This document shows positions 2,913 to 22,033 of a stretch of 64,000 nt of DNA, piece by piece. This DNA is from Debaryomyces hansenii CBS767. Taxonomy: Eukaryota > Ascomycota > Pichiomycetes > Serinales > Debaryomycetaceae. The stretch lies in contig NC_006046.2 in NCBI RefSeq assembly GCF_000006445.2, positions 1,054,001-1,118,000 on the forward strand. Direction: 5' to 3'. The stretch's first letter is position 1. Every line of letters begins with the position of its first letter. The notes under the pieces are model-generated. The model was not told where the DNA came from and searched no databases. It saw only the letters and a program-made list of their open reading frames with translations. Made by a program: the position numbers and the translations under genes.

Positions 2913-4579
2913 ACATGAAGTTATGGTATTAGATTTATAGATGTATGTATTAGGGTGCACGATTTTCAATCATTTAGTCAATCCTATTACTGGGGTTAAT
3001 TGGTGCAATTCAGAAGTAATGAATAAGTATGAGATCCCTGATAATGGTAATAATGGTACTTTATGGTGCTTTATGTAGTTTCCCTTTATGTTATCCCTGT
3101 ATCCAAAAAAAAATGTAGACCATTGAGGTCAATGATTAGTAGATGGAAGTTTTAATCTCCTAAATCAAAGACAATGCTACAGAACTCTCCTCGGTGACTT
3201 GTAGCATTTGTGGCTTGTTGGAATGATATGACACCTATATTTCGTATTTCTGTATTTGGGTTGGATATATGACATCCGGGTTTCTTATTTGATTTTTCGT
3301 AGATGGCTTTGGGGACTACGAATTGGTCACCACATCATGCTAACCAACCTAGACATATTATATTTCATGTATGTTTTCCTTTTGTACAATAGGGAATAAC
3401 CGGGAAGATGAATCCAGATAAATAAAACTTACGGACATCCAATATCATATCTGGTATCAGAGTTCTTTTAAAGTGAGCGCTCTTTGCAGCCTACGGTATA
3501 GACTACTTTTTTTTTTTTCATATCAAAAACAGCATTTCCATAAATTAGGTGGGCCCGGATTGGTTACTAATACCTTGTTGTTGTTATTCTAGCTTGCTTC
3601 GTGGATAAATGATTTTTGCTGACTTTTTGTAATCAATTTCTATATTTCTGTCAAATTTTCAAACTTTCTGTAAATGGTAAATTATGCAACAAAACTTTTG
3701 CACAGATTTAACTACAAAAATAAGTTAAACATTTTAAATTAATTATAAGGTATGCTTATTCATGGTTAATATAGAGGAATATACTGTTAGTAGTCTGAAA
3801 GCTTACTACTGATTATTTGTTCATTCAAGAATATCATAGAGACATATTTAGGGGAGGACATGACCCACTGGGGTTTTCTGTTTTATCTGTTAAATTCAAG
3901 ACCACAATCAATATAACATAATTTAGGAAATAGATGCATCAATTTCATCTATCTTCTATCTTTTTTTTTCTCGTGTTGTGTCTTGGTTCTGTCATTTAAC
4001 AGAAACATTCGTACGTGGTAAAACGTAGAACCACCTTCTAATTATAATTATTCCTTGCAAACCTACCGCTTGCCGAGTACATACTTCGACAAGAAATGTA
4101 TAACAATGACGAATTTAATGATATATACTCTACAAATGCTTACATGGATTGAAAATGAAAGATTGCTTCACCTCAGTATGTGAAATTTTGACCAACATAA
4201 ATCATCTAATTCATATCCTTACAATACGGGATAGGCACTAAAAAAATAAGAAGCACATATAGCTAGGAGTAGATAGTATATACATTCTGAACACACAATT
4301 ATCTATTTGATATTAAGGCTACCCCGAAGGTAATTAAAATAAACGTAGTAATTTTACACCCATTTTGAACATGTGAGAGACACGTATTTGTGTTTTTTTT
4401 TTCAAGGCCAAAAAGCTTGAACGATCTCGAATCAATTATTGGGAAGACAACAAACAATTAATTTATAGATAAATTATACTTACGATTAAGTACAGATTAT
4501 CTTATTAGGATTGATTATTGTAAAATTCAATAAATAACGAAAGGATTTTTGTTTTAATAATTATTGAGATTAATTCATT
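2913..4579. other. Long intergenic region upstream of CDC3
   Basis: A 1.67 kb AT-rich stretch without a credible ORF. It holds several T runs (for example near 3505-3518, 3961 and 4395). I see no tRNA A/B boxes, LTR ends or long repeats. A short RNA gene (snoRNA or other ncRNA) could be hidden here, but I cannot identify one by eye. Confidence 0.5.
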
Positions 4580-5991
4580 ATGAGTGGTATGTTTACTTGT
4601 GATAAACTGATATTAACGATCGATTAGACGCCTAATACTAACATAACATAGCCGAAGTAGAATCTATTCCTCAAGTTGAGAATCAAGCATCAGCAGCTTA
4701 TGAAAATACAGCTAAACAAAATCCGATAGAAAATATTCAACAAGAGCTTAAGATTATTAAGCGTAAGTTGAATGGATATGTTGGGTTTGCAAACTTACCA
4801 AAGCAATGGCACAGGAAATCGGTCAGAAGAGGTTTTACATTGAATATAATGATTGCCGGAGAAAGTGGGTTGGGTAAAAAAACTTTGATAAACACGTTAT
4901 TCAACAGGGAAATTTTATCTAATGACATTAACGAGGAATCAGCAGAATTCGATGACGGAGAGACCCAACCTGTCAGAACCAGAACCGACAAGGCTGAAAT
5001 TGAAGAAGATGGTGTTAAATTGAACTTGAGTGTTATATCTACACCAGGATTTGGTGAATCAATTAACAATGCTGACTCTTGGAAGCCAATCGTTGACGAA
5101 ATTAATGACAGGTTTGATGCCCACTTAGAAGCAGAAAGTAGAATAAATAGATCTGCTATTGTTGACAATAGGGTCCACGCGTTCCTTTATTTTATTGAAC
5201 CAACTGGTCACTCTTTGAGATCTTTGGATATTGCTCTTATGAAAGAGATTCACGAAAAGGTCAATTTGATTCCAGTTATTGCCAAGTCGGATACGTTGAC
5301 TGAAGAAGAAATTATCGATTTCAAGCAAAGAATCTTAGAAGATATTAGGTATCAAGGAATTAAGACCTTCAATCCAGCTCAATATGACAACGATGATGAA
5401 GAATCTTTTGCTAACACTCAGAGCATCATGAACAAATTACCATTTGCTGTGGTTGGATCTACTAAGGAGGTCGAAACTGTCGACGGCAGAATTGTCAGAG
5501 GTAGAAGCTATCCATGGGGTATAATCGAAGTTGACAATGAGGAACACTGTGACTTTATAAAATTACGTCAATTATTGATAAGAAACTTTTTAGAAGAATT
5601 AAAAGAACATACCGCCAATTCATTATATGAAAATTACAGATCCGAAAAATTATTGAGAATGGGAATCCAACAAGATAACTCGGTCTTTAAGGAATTCGAT
5701 CCATTGGCAAGACAAGAAGAAGAGAAGAGCCTCCACGAAGCTAAATTGGCTAAGATGGAAGCAGAAATGAAGAATGTTTTCCAACAAAAGGTTTCAGAAA
5801 AAGAGAAAAAATTACAAAGATCAGAAGCCGATTTGTTTGCTAGACATAAAGAAATGAAAGACAAATTATCTAAACAAATAAAATTATTAGAAGATAAGAA
5901 AGAACAATTAGAGAAGCAAAAATCGTTACCCCAAGAGCCAGCACAACCAGCACCGGCACCAACAAAGAGTCGTAAGGGTTTCTTACGTTAG
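4580..5991 (+). CDS. CDC3: Septin Cdc3, one intron
   Basis: The model is join(4580..4586,4652..5991), 448 residues. Exon 1 is only ATGAGTG, and exon 2 continues in frame as AEVESIPQ. The protein has the Cdc3 signature NGYVGFANLPKQWHRKS, a septin GTPase domain (residues about 65-350) with P-loop GESGLGKK, G4 motif AKSD and the septin-unique RGRSYPWG, then a C-terminal coiled coil (about 360-430) and the Cdc3-type tail GFLR. Cdc3 is a core subunit of the hetero-octameric septin rod at the bud neck. The P-loop Ser/Thr is Lys (GKK) and the G3 Asp is Ser (STPGFG), so GTP hydrolysis is probably lost. This fits the view that Cdc3 is a catalytically silent septin. Confidence 0.93.
4587..4651 (+). other. 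CDC3: Intron of CDC3
   Basis: Donor GTATGT at 4587, branch TACTAAC at 4636-4642, acceptor ATAG ending at 4651. It follows a 7-nt coding exon. Retention gives a stop after 14 further codons. Confidence 0.88.
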
Positions 5992-14890: not shown

Positions 14891-15100
14891 GCCATATAGT
14901 GAGACAAGAAAGCATACTCTCAATATGCCAATAATTCTATAGAATATAGTAATTTAAGATACATATACAATTCAATATGTCATTACACTAGGCCTAAGTT
15001 CAAACTACACAATATATTAGAATTACCTCTATAATACGATACCAAAATCATTCATAAACCCACTAGCTTTGAGATTCAGCCCCCACTATCAAATAAAATG

Positions 15101-17110
15101 TAAATCAAACAAACACACGTTCTAAAGCATTAAAATCTTGCTGCTCCAGTCCACTATCATAAATATTAACATTGGGCCTAGAAAGTGCAAAATCAATGAT
15201 GTATACTTGCCCTTCTTTTGTACAGAGAATATTGTCTTCTTTAATATCCCTGTGTACAATTCCGTTCCGGTGAATCACCTCCAATTGTTTCCTAGCCTTC
15301 TCATATGTTTCCCGGTCTTTCGGTAACGGGGCTTTCTCGATATATCGAAAAAGGTTGAAGTGCCCTTTCGCAACATACAGTTTGTCCATGGTAATCATGA
15401 CCTGCCCCATCTTTTGACGAACGTAGCAACTATTGAACTCAGGGTCTTTGGACAAGATTGAATAGCATAATCTTTCAGTGCGGTACCATTCATAACACAC
15501 GTCTTTCTTTTCTTCAAAAGAATAACCTTTAAATTCATATCTGTTAACCATGCGCGGGTCATACACCTTTGCAACTAGAGTTGTGTTGTCATCGATCAGT
15601 TCTAGCAAGAATCTCTTGAAACATATAGCCTCTAGTTTAACTAATTGTGCATTAAATACATCTGAATTTTGCATTAAAACGTAGTTACTGTTCTTAGGCA
15701 TATTGATAGGCATTTCATCTGCTTCTCCCTCTTTCGCTTGTTCGGTCTCCTCACTAATAGATTCGAACACGGACATGTTCGTACCTCTTGTGCTTGGGCG
15801 ACTTCCAGAACCTTCCGACAGGTTCAGGCTTTCTTCACTCAAGATCGCGTCCGTCAATGCTTCTCCAGATAGCTTTAGATGTTCTTCCAATCTGCGAACC
15901 CTTTCTTGTTTGATTATCATTTTCGAATCTTCCTCGACTGATTTATAGATGTACGCCAATAGTGATTCTCGCAACGTGGGTTTAGCCGAGTGGCAGTTTC
16001 GAATCAGATACTTAATTGGAACTATTTTTTTTGATTCGTTGCCCATTTTCACTGGTCTCAGGTTGTGAACGTTCCGTTCGAAAGAATCAAGGTCTAGTTC
16101 CACAAACACAACGACATAAGAGTCTGTAAGTATTCCCTTGTCAGTCTTGAAATAAAGCATCTCGCAGATTAGCTGTTTCATTATTTCCTTTTGATCTGAA
16201 AAAATGCTTCTTATTCCGTCTAATGGCTTGCCATTATAGTCAGGCAATAGAGGATACTTTTTAACCTCTGTAACACAATACACTAGGCTCCCTTTACTAA
16301 TAACTATGTCAGTTCGACACATGAAGTCGACAATAAGAGGTAAAGGTCGGTGCCATGTAGCTGGTCGTTCAGTCTCAACTTTCGTTACAATGTCTAAAGC
16401 AATTTTCAACATTTTACATATTGGGCGAATCAAATATGTAATAAAAGCGTCTCGAAAGGGTCCTTCTAAGGCCCCTTCTAGTGGAATCAATTCGTATTCA
16501 TGGAAAGCAAAACCTATAAGGGCGTCTGCCAAATCGTTATCCTCTATTCGACGGAAAATTTCCCTTATAGTGATGGCCACTTCGTCATCCCCCATTTCTG
16601 TCAAATAATTGTTACCGCACCTAAAATAGGGAAATTGTTTGATGTAATTATTAGAGCTTCCTTTATTACCACTACTCGAAGAATTACTCTTATTCTCTAT
16701 TTCATATTCACACATAGGAAGCGACAAAATGAGCCTGAATAGCCTCTTAACATGGTGTGGGTAGCTTCTCCTTAAGTCTATAAGAAACTCCAGATATCGA
16801 GTTTGAACTCTTGAAATAAAATGATCCATTTCTTGATTATCAACCTTAAACAACTCGTGAATTAGAATCCGGTAATCAACTGTCATCACTCTCCAACCTG
16901 GATAAAAATCACGATAACCGTACATCTCTAATTCATCTTCAACGCATTTAGACATTGCGAGATACAATGGATGCTGTGAAACTAAATCCCTGGAAGCTTC
17001 ATTCATAGCTACTTCATTGCGATTAAATTATCTTCCTAAATACTTCTCCATATTATACTACTTCTATTATATATTGAATCTTAAACATATTATGCTATAC
17101 ATTATATGCA
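15101..17110. repeat. Tandem duplication unit A (2.0 kb)
   Basis: Together with unit B at 17315-19331, this is a direct duplication with an offset of 2214 bp. It includes the whole coding region, a few bases after the stop and about 100 bp of promoter. Unit B has a 7-bp insertion in the promoter. A 204-bp spacer (17111-17314) is not repeated. Confidence 0.92.
15105..17006 (-). CDS. PD-(D/E)XK nuclease-kinase fusion protein, tandem copy A
   Basis: A 633-residue protein. Residues 1-170 are a variable N-terminal region. Residues about 172-310 look like a restriction-endonuclease fold: RTDIVI (Asp233), then VTEVKK (Glu247, Lys249), 14 residues apart, then a helix with Gln272 and Gln278. A linker with a Ser-rich patch spans about 350-440. 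Residues about 450-633 form a kinase-like domain: TTLVAK (Lys480), TERLCYSIL (Glu511), VHRDIKEDN (Asp587, Lys589, Asn592) and IIDFALS (Asp605; Gly of DFG replaced by Ala). It ends 26 residues after DFA, so the large C-lobe helices are absent. This order resembles the nuclease-kinase effectors related to Crinklers. There is no signal peptide or membrane segment. Domain calls are by eye. The biological role is unknown. Confidence 0.72.
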   Translation of the reverse strand: MNEASRDLVSQHPLYLAMSKCVEDELEMYGYRDFYPGWRVMTVDYRILIHELFKVDNQEMDHFISRVQTRYLEFLIDLRRSYPHHVKRLFRLILSLPMCEYEIENKSNSSSSGNKGSSNNYIKQFPYFRCGNNYLTEMGDDEVAITIREIFRRIEDNDLADALIGFAFHEYELIPLEGALEGPFRDAFITYLIRPICKMLKIALDIVTKVETERPATWHRPLPLIVDFMCRTDIVISKGSLVYCVTEVKKYPLLPDYNGKPLDGIRSIFSDQKEIMKQLICEMLYFKTDKGILTDSYVVVFVELDLDSFERNVHNLRPVKMGNESKKIVPIKYLIRNCHSAKPTLRESLLAYIYKSVEEDSKMIIKQERVRRLEEHLKLSGEALTDAILSEESLNLSEGSGSRPSTRGTNMSVFESISEETEQAKEGEADEMPINMPKNSNYVLMQNSDVFNAQLVKLEAICFKRFLLELIDDNTTLVAKVYDPRMVNRYEFKGYSFEEKKDVCYEWYRTERLCYSILSKDPEFNSCYVRQKMGQVMITMDKLYVAKGHFNLFRYIEKAPLPKDRETYEKARKQLEVIHRNGIVHRDIKEDNILCTKEGQVYIIDFALSRPNVNIYDSGLEQQDFNALERVFV

Positions 17111-17318
17111 GTATAATGGTTGCAAGATTGTTTCAAGAAGGTCCAGTTAGAGCTAGATGAGTCGTCTTGCACATCCATGTCATCATCTGACGGTCATTAT
17201 GCTTGTATATTATTTGATCGCTTGTGGAAATTGATGTCTGGCTATTAAATACTTACTGGTGTTTTGCTTTCAATTACCACGATTTACACCTTAACTTTCG
17301 GCTTTTTGCTAATATAAA
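17007..17318. other. Spacer between the two nuclease-kinase genes
   Basis: The first 104 bp are the promoter of copy A and match the promoter of copy B. The remaining 204 bp (17111-17314) are unique and have no ORF or repeat that I can see. Confidence 0.7.
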
Positions 17319-19331
17319 TCATGCAAACACACGTTCTAAAGCATTAAAATCTTGCTGCTCCAGTCCACTATCATAAATATTAACATTGGGCCTAGAAAGT
17401 GCAAAATCAATGATGTATACTTGCCCTTCTTTTGTACAGAGAATATTGTCTTCTTTAATATCCCTGTGTACAATTCCGTTCCGGTGAATCACCTCCAATT
17501 GTTTCCTAGCCTTCTCATATGTTTCCCGGTCTTTCGGTAACGGGGCTTTCTCGATATATCGAAAAAGGTTGAAGTGCCCTTTTGCAACATACAGTTTGTC
17601 CATGGTAATCATGACCTGCCCCATCCTTTGACGAACGTAGCAACTATTGAACTCAGGGTCTTTGGACAAGATTGAATAGCATACTCTTTCAGTGCGGTAC
17701 CATTCATAACACACGTCTTTCTTTTCTTCAAAAGAATAACCTTTAAATTCATATCTGTTAACCATGCGCGGGTCATACACCTTTGCGACTAGAGTTGCGT
17801 TGTCATCGATCAGTTCTAGCAAGAATCTCTTGAAACATATAGCCTCTAGTTTAACTAATTGTGCATTAAATACATCTGAATTTTGCATTAAAACGTAGGT
17901 ACTGTTCTTAGGCACATCGATAGGCATTTCATCTGCTTCTCTCTCTTTCTCTTGTTCGGTCTCCTCACTAATAGATTCGAACACGGACATGTTCGTACCT
18001 CTTGTGCTTGGGCGACTTCCAGAACCTTCCGACAGATTCAGGCTTTCTTCACTCAAGATCGCGTCCGTCAATGCTTCTCCAGATAGCTTTAGATGTTCTT
18101 CCAATCTGCGAACCCTTTCTTGTTTGATTATCATTTTCGAATCTTCCTCGACTGATTTATAGATGTACGCCAATAGTGATTCTCGCAACGTGGGTTTAGC
18201 TGAGTGGCAGTTTCGAATCAGATACTTAATTGGAACTATTTTTTTTGATTCGTTGCCCATTTTCACTGGTCTCAGGTTGTGGACGTTCCTTTCGAAAGAA
18301 TCAAGGTCTAGTTCCACAAACACAACGACATAAGAGTCTGTAAGTATTCCCTTGTCAGTCTTGAAATAAAGCATCTCGCAGATTAGCTGTTTCATTATTT
18401 CCTTTTGATCTGAAAAAATGCTTCTTATTCCGTCTAATGGCTTGCCATTATAGTCAGGCAATAGAGGATACTTTTTAACCTCTGTAACACAATACACTAG
18501 GCTCCCTTTACTAATAACTATGTCAGTTCGACACATGAAGTCGACAATAAGAGGTAAAGGTCGGTGCCATGTAGCTGGTCGTTCAGTCTCAACTTTCGTT
18601 ACAATGTCTAAAGCAATTTTCAACATTTTACATATTGGGCGAATCAAATATGTAATAAAAGCGTCTCGAAAGGGTCCTTCTAAAGCCCCTTCTAGTGGAA
18701 TCAATTCGTATTCATGGAAAGCAAAACCTGTAAGGGCGTTTGACAAATGTTTATCCTCCATTCGAAGGAAAAGTTCCCTTATAGTGATGACTACTTCGTC
18801 GTCCCCCATTTCTATCAAATAATTGTTACTGCACCTAAAATAGGGAAACTGTTTAATGTAATGATTGGAGCTTCCTTTGCTACCACTACTCGAGAAATTA
18901 TTCATATTGTCTATTTCATATTCACACATAGGAAGCGACAAAATGAGCTTGAATAGCCTCTTAACGTGCTGTGGGTAGCCAAGTTCTAAGAGTGCTAAAA
19001 ATCTCAGATATTGAGATTCAACACTTGGGACAAAGCCTGCTGCTTCTTGATTATCTACTTTAAATATCTCTTGAATTAGAATCCGATAATCCACTGTCAT
19101 CACTCCCCAACCTTGATAGAAATCACGATAATCGTACATCTCTAATTCATCTTCAACGCATTTAGACATTGCGAGATACAATGGATGCTGTGAAACTAGA
19201 TCCCTGGAAGCTTCATTCATAGCTACTTCATTGCGATTAAATTATCTTCCTAAATACTTCTCCATATTATACTACTTCTATTATATATTGAATCTGAAAC
19301 ATATTACATATTATGCTATACATTATATGCA
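17315..19331. repeat. Tandem duplication unit B (2.0 kb)
   Basis: Second copy of the unit described at 15101-17110, in the same orientation. The match runs from the TAAATC just before the stop to the ATTATATGCA in the promoter. Confidence 0.92.
17319..19220 (-). CDS. PD-(D/E)XK nuclease-kinase fusion protein, tandem copy B
   Basis: Same length (633) and same architecture as copy A, with every candidate catalytic residue kept: Asp233, Glu247 and Lys249 in the nuclease part; Lys480, Glu511, Asp587, Asn592 and Asp605 in the kinase part. Differences from copy A are concentrated before residue 170 (roughly 35-40 changes, many non-conservative, for example QEAAGFVPSVES against QEMDHFISRVQT). The following 460 residues differ at only about a dozen positions, half of them in the Glu-rich linker near 420-440. 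Both frames are intact, so both copies are probably under selection or very recent. The role is unknown. Confidence 0.72.
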   Translation of the reverse strand: MNEASRDLVSQHPLYLAMSKCVEDELEMYDYRDFYQGWGVMTVDYRILIQEIFKVDNQEAAGFVPSVESQYLRFLALLELGYPQHVKRLFKLILSLPMCEYEIDNMNNFSSSGSKGSSNHYIKQFPYFRCSNNYLIEMGDDEVVITIRELFLRMEDKHLSNALTGFAFHEYELIPLEGALEGPFRDAFITYLIRPICKMLKIALDIVTKVETERPATWHRPLPLIVDFMCRTDIVISKGSLVYCVTEVKKYPLLPDYNGKPLDGIRSIFSDQKEIMKQLICEMLYFKTDKGILTDSYVVVFVELDLDSFERNVHNLRPVKMGNESKKIVPIKYLIRNCHSAKPTLRESLLAYIYKSVEEDSKMIIKQERVRRLEEHLKLSGEALTDAILSEESLNLSEGSGSRPSTRGTNMSVFESISEETEQEKEREADEMPIDVPKNSTYVLMQNSDVFNAQLVKLEAICFKRFLLELIDDNATLVAKVYDPRMVNRYEFKGYSFEEKKDVCYEWYRTERVCYSILSKDPEFNSCYVRQRMGQVMITMDKLYVAKGHFNLFRYIEKAPLPKDRETYEKARKQLEVIHRNGIVHRDIKEDNILCTKEGQVYIIDFALSRPNVNIYDSGLEQQDFNALERVFA

Positions 19332-21337: not shown

Positions 21338-22033
21338 TCATATCGCTCGGGTCAACACCTCACCTGGCTGGTACAACACCAGTTCCACCTGCGTTTCTGT
21401 CATCCCCTTCACAAGCACATGGAGATGCGAGATTGTCTTCACCGACTGCAACGCCTCCCAATTCTTAAACCACACGATGTTCTTGCGGTCGATGCCCATC
21501 CCATCCACAAACGTCTTGCAGACGTATTTTTCGATGATTTCTCTCGTGGCAGGCGAAATGTCCCCGATGGGTGACGTCTCGTCCGGCTCGATCCGCAACT
21601 TTGTCCACACACACATGTGCATCACATCGTCCTCAAAATAGTACGGAAAGTGGTTGGGTACGATTTTCAAGTCATCTTTGTGGGTAAATAACTTGTAGCT
21701 AGCAGGACTAATGACTATCTGGTTGTCGGGAACCGCATTTCGAATAACCTCATCCCAGCTCATACCTCCATTCTCCTTAGGATCGTACCATTTCAACTCG
21801 TTGCTCAACAAGTGCTTGAAAATCGTAGTATGGTTTTTCTGGAGCTGTGCTTTAAAGCTATGGTAGTTTTCCGTCTGCTGCAACGACCGGGCAAATTTTT
21901 CGAGTCTATTCTCTCCAACAATCTCCTTCACCTCCTCCCACGTATATTCTTTGTCTCTAATTTTAGATGGTGGCATTCCTGGTGTGTGAACAACTCTGAT
22001 TTTAATGTGAGTATCAGTTTTCGTAGTAATCAT
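21338..22033 (-). CDS. GIG1: Gig1-like protein (DUF3605)
   Basis: A 231-residue soluble protein. It matches what I know of the DUF3605 family, whose named member is Candida Gig1, a GlcNAc-induced cytoplasmic protein. Family-like segments are YTWEEVKEIV near residue 30, KWYDPKENGGMSWDEVIRN near 82, NHFPYYFEDDVMHMCVWTK near 128, and IVWFKNWEALQSVKTISHLHVLV near 186. The conserved HLHVLV and WFKN motifs suggest a fold with a functional site, but no reaction is known. It is divergent from a phosphoglycerate mutase gene, 342 bp away. Confidence 0.75.
   Translation of the reverse strand: MITTKTDTHIKIRVVHTPGMPPSKIRDKEYTWEEVKEIVGENRLEKFARSLQQTENYHSFKAQLQKNHTTIFKHLLSNELKWYDPKENGGMSWDEVIRNAVPDNQIVISPASYKLFTHKDDLKIVPNHFPYYFEDDVMHMCVWTKLRIEPDETSPIGDISPATREIIEKYVCKTFVDGMGIDRKNIVWFKNWEALQSVKTISHLHVLVKGMTETQVELVLYQPGEVLTRAI

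What the first reader, a model, noticed from the sequence alone, without database searches (positions are those of the whole stretch)
15101..19331. Tandem nuclease-kinase fusion genes in an accessory island
Two intact 633-codon genes combine a PD-(D/E)XK-like core (Asp233, Glu247, Lys249) with a kinase-like core (Lys480, Glu511, Asp587, Asn592, Asp605). This order resembles Crinkler-related nuclease-kinase effectors described in eukaryotes, which are thought to derive from transposon or conflict systems. In a free-living yeast such a pair between GPI18 and the histone genes is unexpected. It could act in genome conflict, self/non-self control or as a selfish element. The domain reading is mine and was not searched.
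Basis: partly seen in the sequence, partly recalled or inferred. Interest (0 to 1): 0.78.

Follow-up and report, generated by a model that had tools for sequence, protein, structure and literature searches.

The report
Yeast nuclease-kinase gene family
Two neighbouring yeast genes that fuse a predicted DNA- or RNA-cutting enzyme to a small kinase belong to a family of about forty related genes in the same genome, many of them near chromosome ends and with front parts reshuffled between copies; this looks like genetic-conflict machinery, but no function has been tested.

Summary
The two 633-codon ORFs are real (15105-17006 and 17319-19220, minus strand). The kinase is clear: Pfam Pkinase E 2e-10, RIO-like minimal fold. 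The nuclease is supported indirectly: E181, D233, E247-x-K249 and Q278 lie on a restriction-endonuclease-like order of helices and strands in an AlphaFold model, and D/E/K are kept in 18 of 19 intact paralogues. No profile or fold match to a known nuclease was obtained.

The setting was misread. The window lies in what looks like the Debaryomyces hansenii CBS767 genome, which holds at least 39 long intact frames of this kind: 10 like the window's, 9 of a sister group, and 20 with Pfam DUF3698, whose region carries PD...DxK in the 10 examined. The last two groups crowd chromosome ends with fixed polarity. In recent duplicates of the first two groups the N-terminal third is more diverged than the body; in the sister group N-terminal and body trees conflict.

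Best reading: Crinkler-like intracellular conflict effectors. Crinkler membership is not shown.

The parts
15105..17006 (-). Copy A, 633-codon nuclease-kinase gene
   Evidence: ORF; named residues present; kinase Pfam hit
17319..19220 (-). Copy B, 633-codon nuclease-kinase gene
   Evidence: ORF; named residues present; kinase Pfam hit; AlphaFold model
17311..19331 (-). Duplicated unit holding copy B, including about 110 bases upstream
   Evidence: blastn 95.5% identity to 15097-17110
15097..17110 (-). Duplicated unit holding copy A, including about 100 bases upstream
   Evidence: blastn 95.5% identity to 17311-19331
18729..19133 (-). Copy B codons 30-164: diverged N-terminal segment
   Evidence: dS 0.307, dN 0.167 against copy A, versus dS 0.028 in codons 165-633
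16515..16919 (-). Copy A codons 30-164: diverged N-terminal segment
   Evidence: as for copy B
18171..18728 (-). Copy B codons 165-350: predicted PD-(D/E)XK nuclease (E181, D233, E247, K249, Q278)
   Evidence: conservation, predicted topology; no profile match
15957..16514 (-). Copy A codons 165-350: predicted PD-(D/E)XK nuclease
   Evidence: identical residues; no amino-acid difference from copy B in this stretch
17322..17870 (-). Copy B codons 451-633: RIO/Bud32-like minimal kinase (K480, E511, D587, N592, D605)
   Evidence: Pfam, VIA-align, model pLDDT mostly about 85-95
15108..15656 (-). Copy A codons 451-633: RIO/Bud32-like minimal kinase
   Evidence: Pfam; residues

Best explanation
The pair are two intact members of a large family, known so far from Debaryomyces and Priceomyces, of intracellular proteins. 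Each joins a variable N-terminal module, a PD-(D/E)XK-type nuclease and a RIO/Bud32-like kinase. Shown: the frames, the kinase, the family size, unequal divergence along the gene with tree conflict in the sister group, purifying selection on the nuclease stretch, and conserved nuclease-type residues. Inferred: the nuclease cuts nucleic acid; the kinase (or ATPase) part switches or tunes it; the N-terminal module sets target, trigger or partner. Most likely role, inferred: a conflict effector acting on invading or non-self nucleic acid or on rival elements, working like the REase-kinase class of Crinkler-type (CR) proteins, with N-terminal variety made by recombination between copies.
Against: No profile or fold match to a nuclease. 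The N-terminal module is modelled with low confidence, so its recognition role is a guess. No positive selection there (omega 0.54). Codons 420-633 show 3 synonymous and 9 replacement changes between A and B, so constraint on linker plus kinase is weak in this pair. Group I tree conflict is significant in one direction only (p 0.0013 and 0.16). One frame lacks the nuclease triad and one lacks the kinase Asp. No expression, activity or phenotype data.
Confidence: 0.5

Rival explanations
1. A signalling or niche-adaptation family of RIO/Bud32-type kinases in which the nuclease-like part is a scaffold or nucleic-acid-binding regulator.
For: A lineage without the nuclease triad keeps an intact frame and complete kinase residues in two forms 85% identical (P0009 = L036 1142-3007, and P0012). 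Kinase omega is low in several group II pairs, 0.09-0.14. Subtelomeric families often serve niche adaptation (general knowledge).
Against: Triad kept in 18 of 19 frames. One frame keeps the triad and loses the kinase Asp (L037). Nuclease-stretch omega is as low as 0.12-0.14 in older pairs.
Confidence: 0.2
2. A selfish family that uses its nuclease to copy itself by breaks and gene conversion, a homing-like element.
For: Tandem copies with homogenised bodies; many copies and fragments.
Against: Chromosome-end copies keep one polarity each (group II toward the telomere 8 of 8, group III 0 of 15), as plain exchange between chromosome ends would leave. Window flanks show no obvious terminal repeats by eye (no systematic search). 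Group I lies away from chromosome ends, 0 of 10 within 65 kb.
Confidence: 0.15
3. Residues 165-350 are not a nuclease; the D...E-x-K spacing is coincidence in some other alpha/beta domain.
Against: Five motif residues are invariant in 18 sequences of two groups about 30% identical and sit on the expected elements of the second model. The DUF3698 frames examined have PD and D-x-K in their own domain, 10 of 10.
Confidence: 0.15

Closest known systems
REase-kinase class of Crinkler/CR-type proteins (Zhang et al. 2016, not held and recalled; described in PMC5289972, passages read)
   Same: Order nuclease then kinase; several copies; recombination-driven variety of the front part (the last recalled).
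   Different: No LxLFLAK-type header motif in 29 of 29 frames; no secretion-like start by a crude check; no direct sequence comparison made.
RIO and Bud32 kinases
   Different: Fused to a nuclease-like domain; the chain ends 28 residues after the DFx Asp (residues).
Pfam DUF3698 (PF12479) proteins
   Same: About 640-codon frames with kinase and a PD...DxK region in the same genome.
   Different: The profile does not hit the window proteins; linked to them by the kinase only.
FunK1 fungal-type kinases (PF17667)
   Same: Fungal multicopy kinases with a long N-terminal part (recalled).
   Different: No PF17667 hit among 7 proteins scanned; 14 places hit in this genome, 0 of them at loci of this family.
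DUF5898 protein of Pandoravirus japonicus (A0A811BR09)
   Same: Best viral structural match, E 7e-7 over 514 alignment columns, more than the kinase alone.
   Different: TM-scores 0.25 and 0.34, rmsd 16: no shared overall arrangement shown; not followed up.

Membership tests
Protein kinase superfamily | Pfam kinase profile above its cut-off | tested here: met
   PF00069 40.7 and 40.6 bits, cut-off 31.7
Protein kinase superfamily | Lys, Glu, HxD Asp, Asn and DFx Asp | tested here: met
   All in both copies; in 19 intact group I+II frames only the HxD Asp varies, once
PD-(D/E)XK nuclease superfamily | Conserved D and (D/E)-x-K, with alpha-1 Glu and Gln as in some branches | tested here: met
   D/E/K in 18 of 19, E181 in 19 of 19, Q278 in 19 of 19
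PD-(D/E)XK nuclease superfamily | Core alpha-beta-beta-beta-alpha-beta order with the motif on strands 2 and 3 | tested here: met
   Predicted model only, mean pLDDT 68.5, core blocks mostly about 80-90
PD-(D/E)XK nuclease superfamily | Profile or fold match to a known member | tested here: inconclusive
   No profile match; fold lists filled by the kinase
PD-(D/E)XK nuclease superfamily | Nuclease activity | not testable with these tools
   Needs a bench assay
Crinkler/CR REase-kinase proteins | Nuclease followed by kinase | tested here: met
   Kinase by Pfam, nuclease by motif and model
Crinkler/CR REase-kinase proteins | LxLFLAK-type motif of the N-terminal header | tested here: not met
   0 of 29 frames; some CR proteins lack the motif according to PMC5289972
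Crinkler/CR REase-kinase proteins | Sequence relation to a known CR nuclease-kinase | not tested
   No CR sequence was fetched
FunK1 (PF17667) | Match to PF17667 | tested here: not met
   Not listed at E up to 1 for 7 proteins; 0 of 14 genome hits at loci of this family
DUF3698 (PF12479) | Match above cut-off 25 bits | tested here: not met
   Window proteins: not listed. The two group III proteins scanned: 144.9 and 156 bits

The most novel reading that the evidence does not exclude
Debaryomyces carries a dispersed, combinatorial nuclease-kinase system in which recombination swaps recognition parts between copies. Nuclease-dead sisters, one of them head to head with an active-looking copy (L036, 1142-3007 minus and 3436-5424 plus), act as antidotes or dominant-negative partners. 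That would be a toxin-antidote or self/non-self system of a budding yeast, giving strain-specific incompatibility or immunity to mobile elements.
Probability: 0.15. Interest if true: 0.88.

Novelty: new variant of a known kind. Interest (0 to 1): 0.58.

Why it matters
If right, a tractable food-associated yeast becomes a model for Crinkler-type nuclease-kinase proteins, which are mostly studied as plant-pathogen effectors. It would suggest a function for Pfam DUF3698 (nuclease core of a kinase fusion), and it would show recombination reshuffling the front part of a conflict-like family, partly at chromosome ends. In the held library no paper contains DUF3698, nor PF12479 or any of three locus tags of the family. 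Three papers hold both Crinkler and Debaryomyces; only titles and abstract openings were seen, and none is on this topic by title. Subscription papers are mostly not in that library.

Tried and rejected
Sequence links for the nuclease: Pfam and NCBIfam gave only kinase-region hits for the window proteins (for copy B), as did the 25 of 32 PADLOC rows shown for copy B. Residues 165-350 as a profile gave four PLK4 chains at E 0.56-0.61 in the PDB, judged chance; Pfam on the 18 pieces gave 5 families, best E 0.04, judged chance. The DUF3698-region profile gave three nitrogenase chains at E 0.022-1.3, judged chance. Hhalign of the two nuclease regions: probability 0.2%, no match.

Fold searches: the kinase filled the lists, so absence of a nuclease there says nothing.

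Positive selection on the variable segment: not seen (omega 0.54 in codons 30-164); unequal divergence is the signal. It is not universal: of 15 group I/II pairs the 9 recent ones have the higher N-terminal dS, in L038/L039 only 1.4 times that of the nuclease stretch, while the 6 older pairs are lower or mixed. Of 8 group III pairs, one (L056/L058) has a clear N-terminal excess; in the others the N-terminal dS is near or below that of the nuclease stretch (L055/L056 excepted: N 2.4, body about 1.2-1.3), and among the recent ones the kinase is lowest.

FunK1: 14 PF17667 places in the genome, none at loci of this family.

Viral or prokaryotic relatives: pattern scans gave 3 viral and 29 prokaryotic stretches, none a relative; these find close relatives only.

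Literature: searches on kinase/subtelomere families, tandem arrays, nuclease-kinase effectors, FunK1 and killer toxins gave nothing on this family in the listings. In the passages shown of PMC2876123 (12 of 28 places) and PMC2822764 (8 of 8) it is not named; the word kinase has 0 occurrences in both main texts.

Synteny of the GPI18-H3 interval elsewhere was not testable: no other yeast genome is held here.

Rows dropped: P0001 from A1; P0001, P0021, P0023 and P0047 from A5 (43 of 47 found proteins used); the nuclease-dead frame L036 1142-3007 from A6 (18 of 19). Of 20 intact DUF3698 frames, DNA was held for 10 and only those were examined for residues. Shorter or broken pieces (in L026, L041, L042, L051, L053, L054) were left out of trees and residue counts.
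Full report
What is there. Two 633-codon frames lie in tandem on the minus strand, 15105-17006 (copy A) and 17319-19220 (copy B). Gaps to the neighbours and between the copies are 214, 312 and 359 bases. Neighbours are a PIG-V-type mannosyltransferase (GPI18-like) and an acetyl-CoA-synthetase-like gene on one side, histones H3 and H4 on the other. This is compact yeast sequence, not a separate island.

Where it comes from. The window is part of contig C4 (1,606,296 bases) of an assembly of 12.18 Mb in 8 contigs. DEHA2C10340p, DEHA2E07348p and DEHA2D00352p of Debaryomyces hansenii CBS767 lie on records of 1,587,442, 2,007,515 and 1,606,296 bases, the lengths of contigs C3, C5 and C4. I take the window as D. 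hansenii CBS767 chromosome D (inference). CTG is probably read as serine there (recalled); 8 CTG codons per copy are affected, none at a named residue, and models and alignments here used leucine for the window proteins.

Conservation of the two active sites. In 19 intact frames of the window's group (I, 10) and a sister group (II, 9), D233, E247 and K249 are kept in 18, Q278 in 19, the kinase Lys and Glu in 19, the HxD Asp in 18, and E181 in 19. The exceptions are informative. One frame (L036 1142-3007, identical to P0009) has G/R/T in place of the triad but complete kinase residues, and a form 85% identical (P0012) shows the same loss. Another (L037) keeps the triad but has Asn for the kinase Asp. 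Groups I and II align over 565 columns (hhalign E 4e-57).

A third group. Kinase similarity led to further frames of about 640 codons. The two scanned match Pfam DUF3698 with 144.9 and 156 bits at about residues 181-280. In the 10 frames whose DNA I held, this region carries PD and D-x-K, and the kinase residues examined are complete, 10 of 10. Profiles link this group to I and II through the kinase only, and the nuclease regions do not match each other. That DUF3698 is a nuclease core is a proposal from motif and architecture.

Family size and place. There are 10 group I and 9 group II intact frames. DUF3698 gives 38 places in this genome, 20 of them in frames of 593 codons or more without stops. 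Of those 20, the kinase was examined in 10; two more have a kinase hit in a frame of the same length close by (C2 near 1339900 and C6 near 2292700). The counts are lower bounds. Within 65 kb of a chromosome end lie 8 of 9 group II and 15 of 20 group III frames, against 0 of 10 of group I. All 8 such group II genes point to the telomere and 0 of 15 group III genes do. Seven of nine group II genes have an intact DUF3698 domain within 3 kb. Fixed polarity is what exchange between chromosome ends would leave (inference). Relatives with an organism name are from D. hansenii, Debaryomyces tyrocola and Priceomyces carsonii; the searches scored about 8000 candidates each and reach only relatives sharing short exact words.

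Mosaic evolution. Copies A and B differ little in codons 165-633 (dS 0.028, dN 0.008) but much in codons 30-164 (dS 0.307, dN 0.167). All 9 recent pairs of groups I and II that I computed, this one included, have a higher dS in the N-terminal third than in nuclease and kinase, for example L043/L044 with 1.05 against 0.11 and 0.02; in L038/L039 the excess is small (0.23 against 0.16 and 0.12). The 6 older pairs do not show it; in L050/L044 the N-terminal third is the more similar part (0.55 against 2.2 and 1.5), which fits exchange of N-termini between subfamilies. In group II the C-terminal data reject the N-terminal tree (AU p 7e-99) and the N-terminal data reject the C-terminal tree (p 0.03). 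In group I only the first direction is significant (p 0.0013 and 0.16). Group III does not follow this pattern: among its recent pairs the kinase is the least diverged part and the nuclease stretch is usually as diverged as the N-terminus. Omega in the variable segment is 0.54, no sign of positive selection. Codons 165-420 show 5 synonymous and 0 replacement changes between A and B, with a neutral chance of about 5e-4; codons 420-633 show 3 and 9, so constraint there is weak in this pair.

What it most likely does. Conserved nuclease-type and kinase residues, a reshuffled front part, narrow known distribution, many copies and no signal-like start (crude check) together fit an intracellular conflict effector. 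A review describes REase plus kinase as about one sixth of CR (Crinkler-type) C-termini, with toxicity assigned to the nuclease and regulation to the NTPase or kinase part (PMC5289972, passages). The primary paper (Zhang et al. 2016) is not held; what I know of it beyond that review is recalled. The works-like claim is reasonable. The is-a claim is not shown: the header motif is absent from 29 of 29 frames, and no Crinkler sequence was compared.

Verdict. The setting was misread: a large family, not a lone island. The function stays inferred. Novelty: a new variant of a known architecture, in a lineage for which the searches made found no description.

Noticed in passing
L044 672-2597, L045 4037-5968, L049 4021-5943, L050 1423-3354, L052 157-1848, L054 3125-5098, L055 740-2659, L056-L058: DUF3698 frames: the Pfam domain of unknown function covers a PD...DxK region upstream of a kinase, so DUF3698 may be a nuclease core.
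   Followed up: partly
L036 1142-3007 (minus) and 3436-5424 (plus): A nuclease-dead, kinase-complete paralogue lies head to head with an active-looking one, 428 bases apart.
   Followed up: partly
L037 805-2583: Paralogue with the nuclease triad intact but Asn in place of the kinase HxD Asp.
   Followed up: no
chromosome ends of G000, e.g. L044, L045, L049, L050: Group II and DUF3698 genes pair up near chromosome ends with fixed polarity, 8 of 8 toward and 0 of 15 toward the telomere.
   Followed up: partly
window 21338-22033: Gene beyond the histone pair encodes a DUF3605 protein of unknown function.
   Followed up: no
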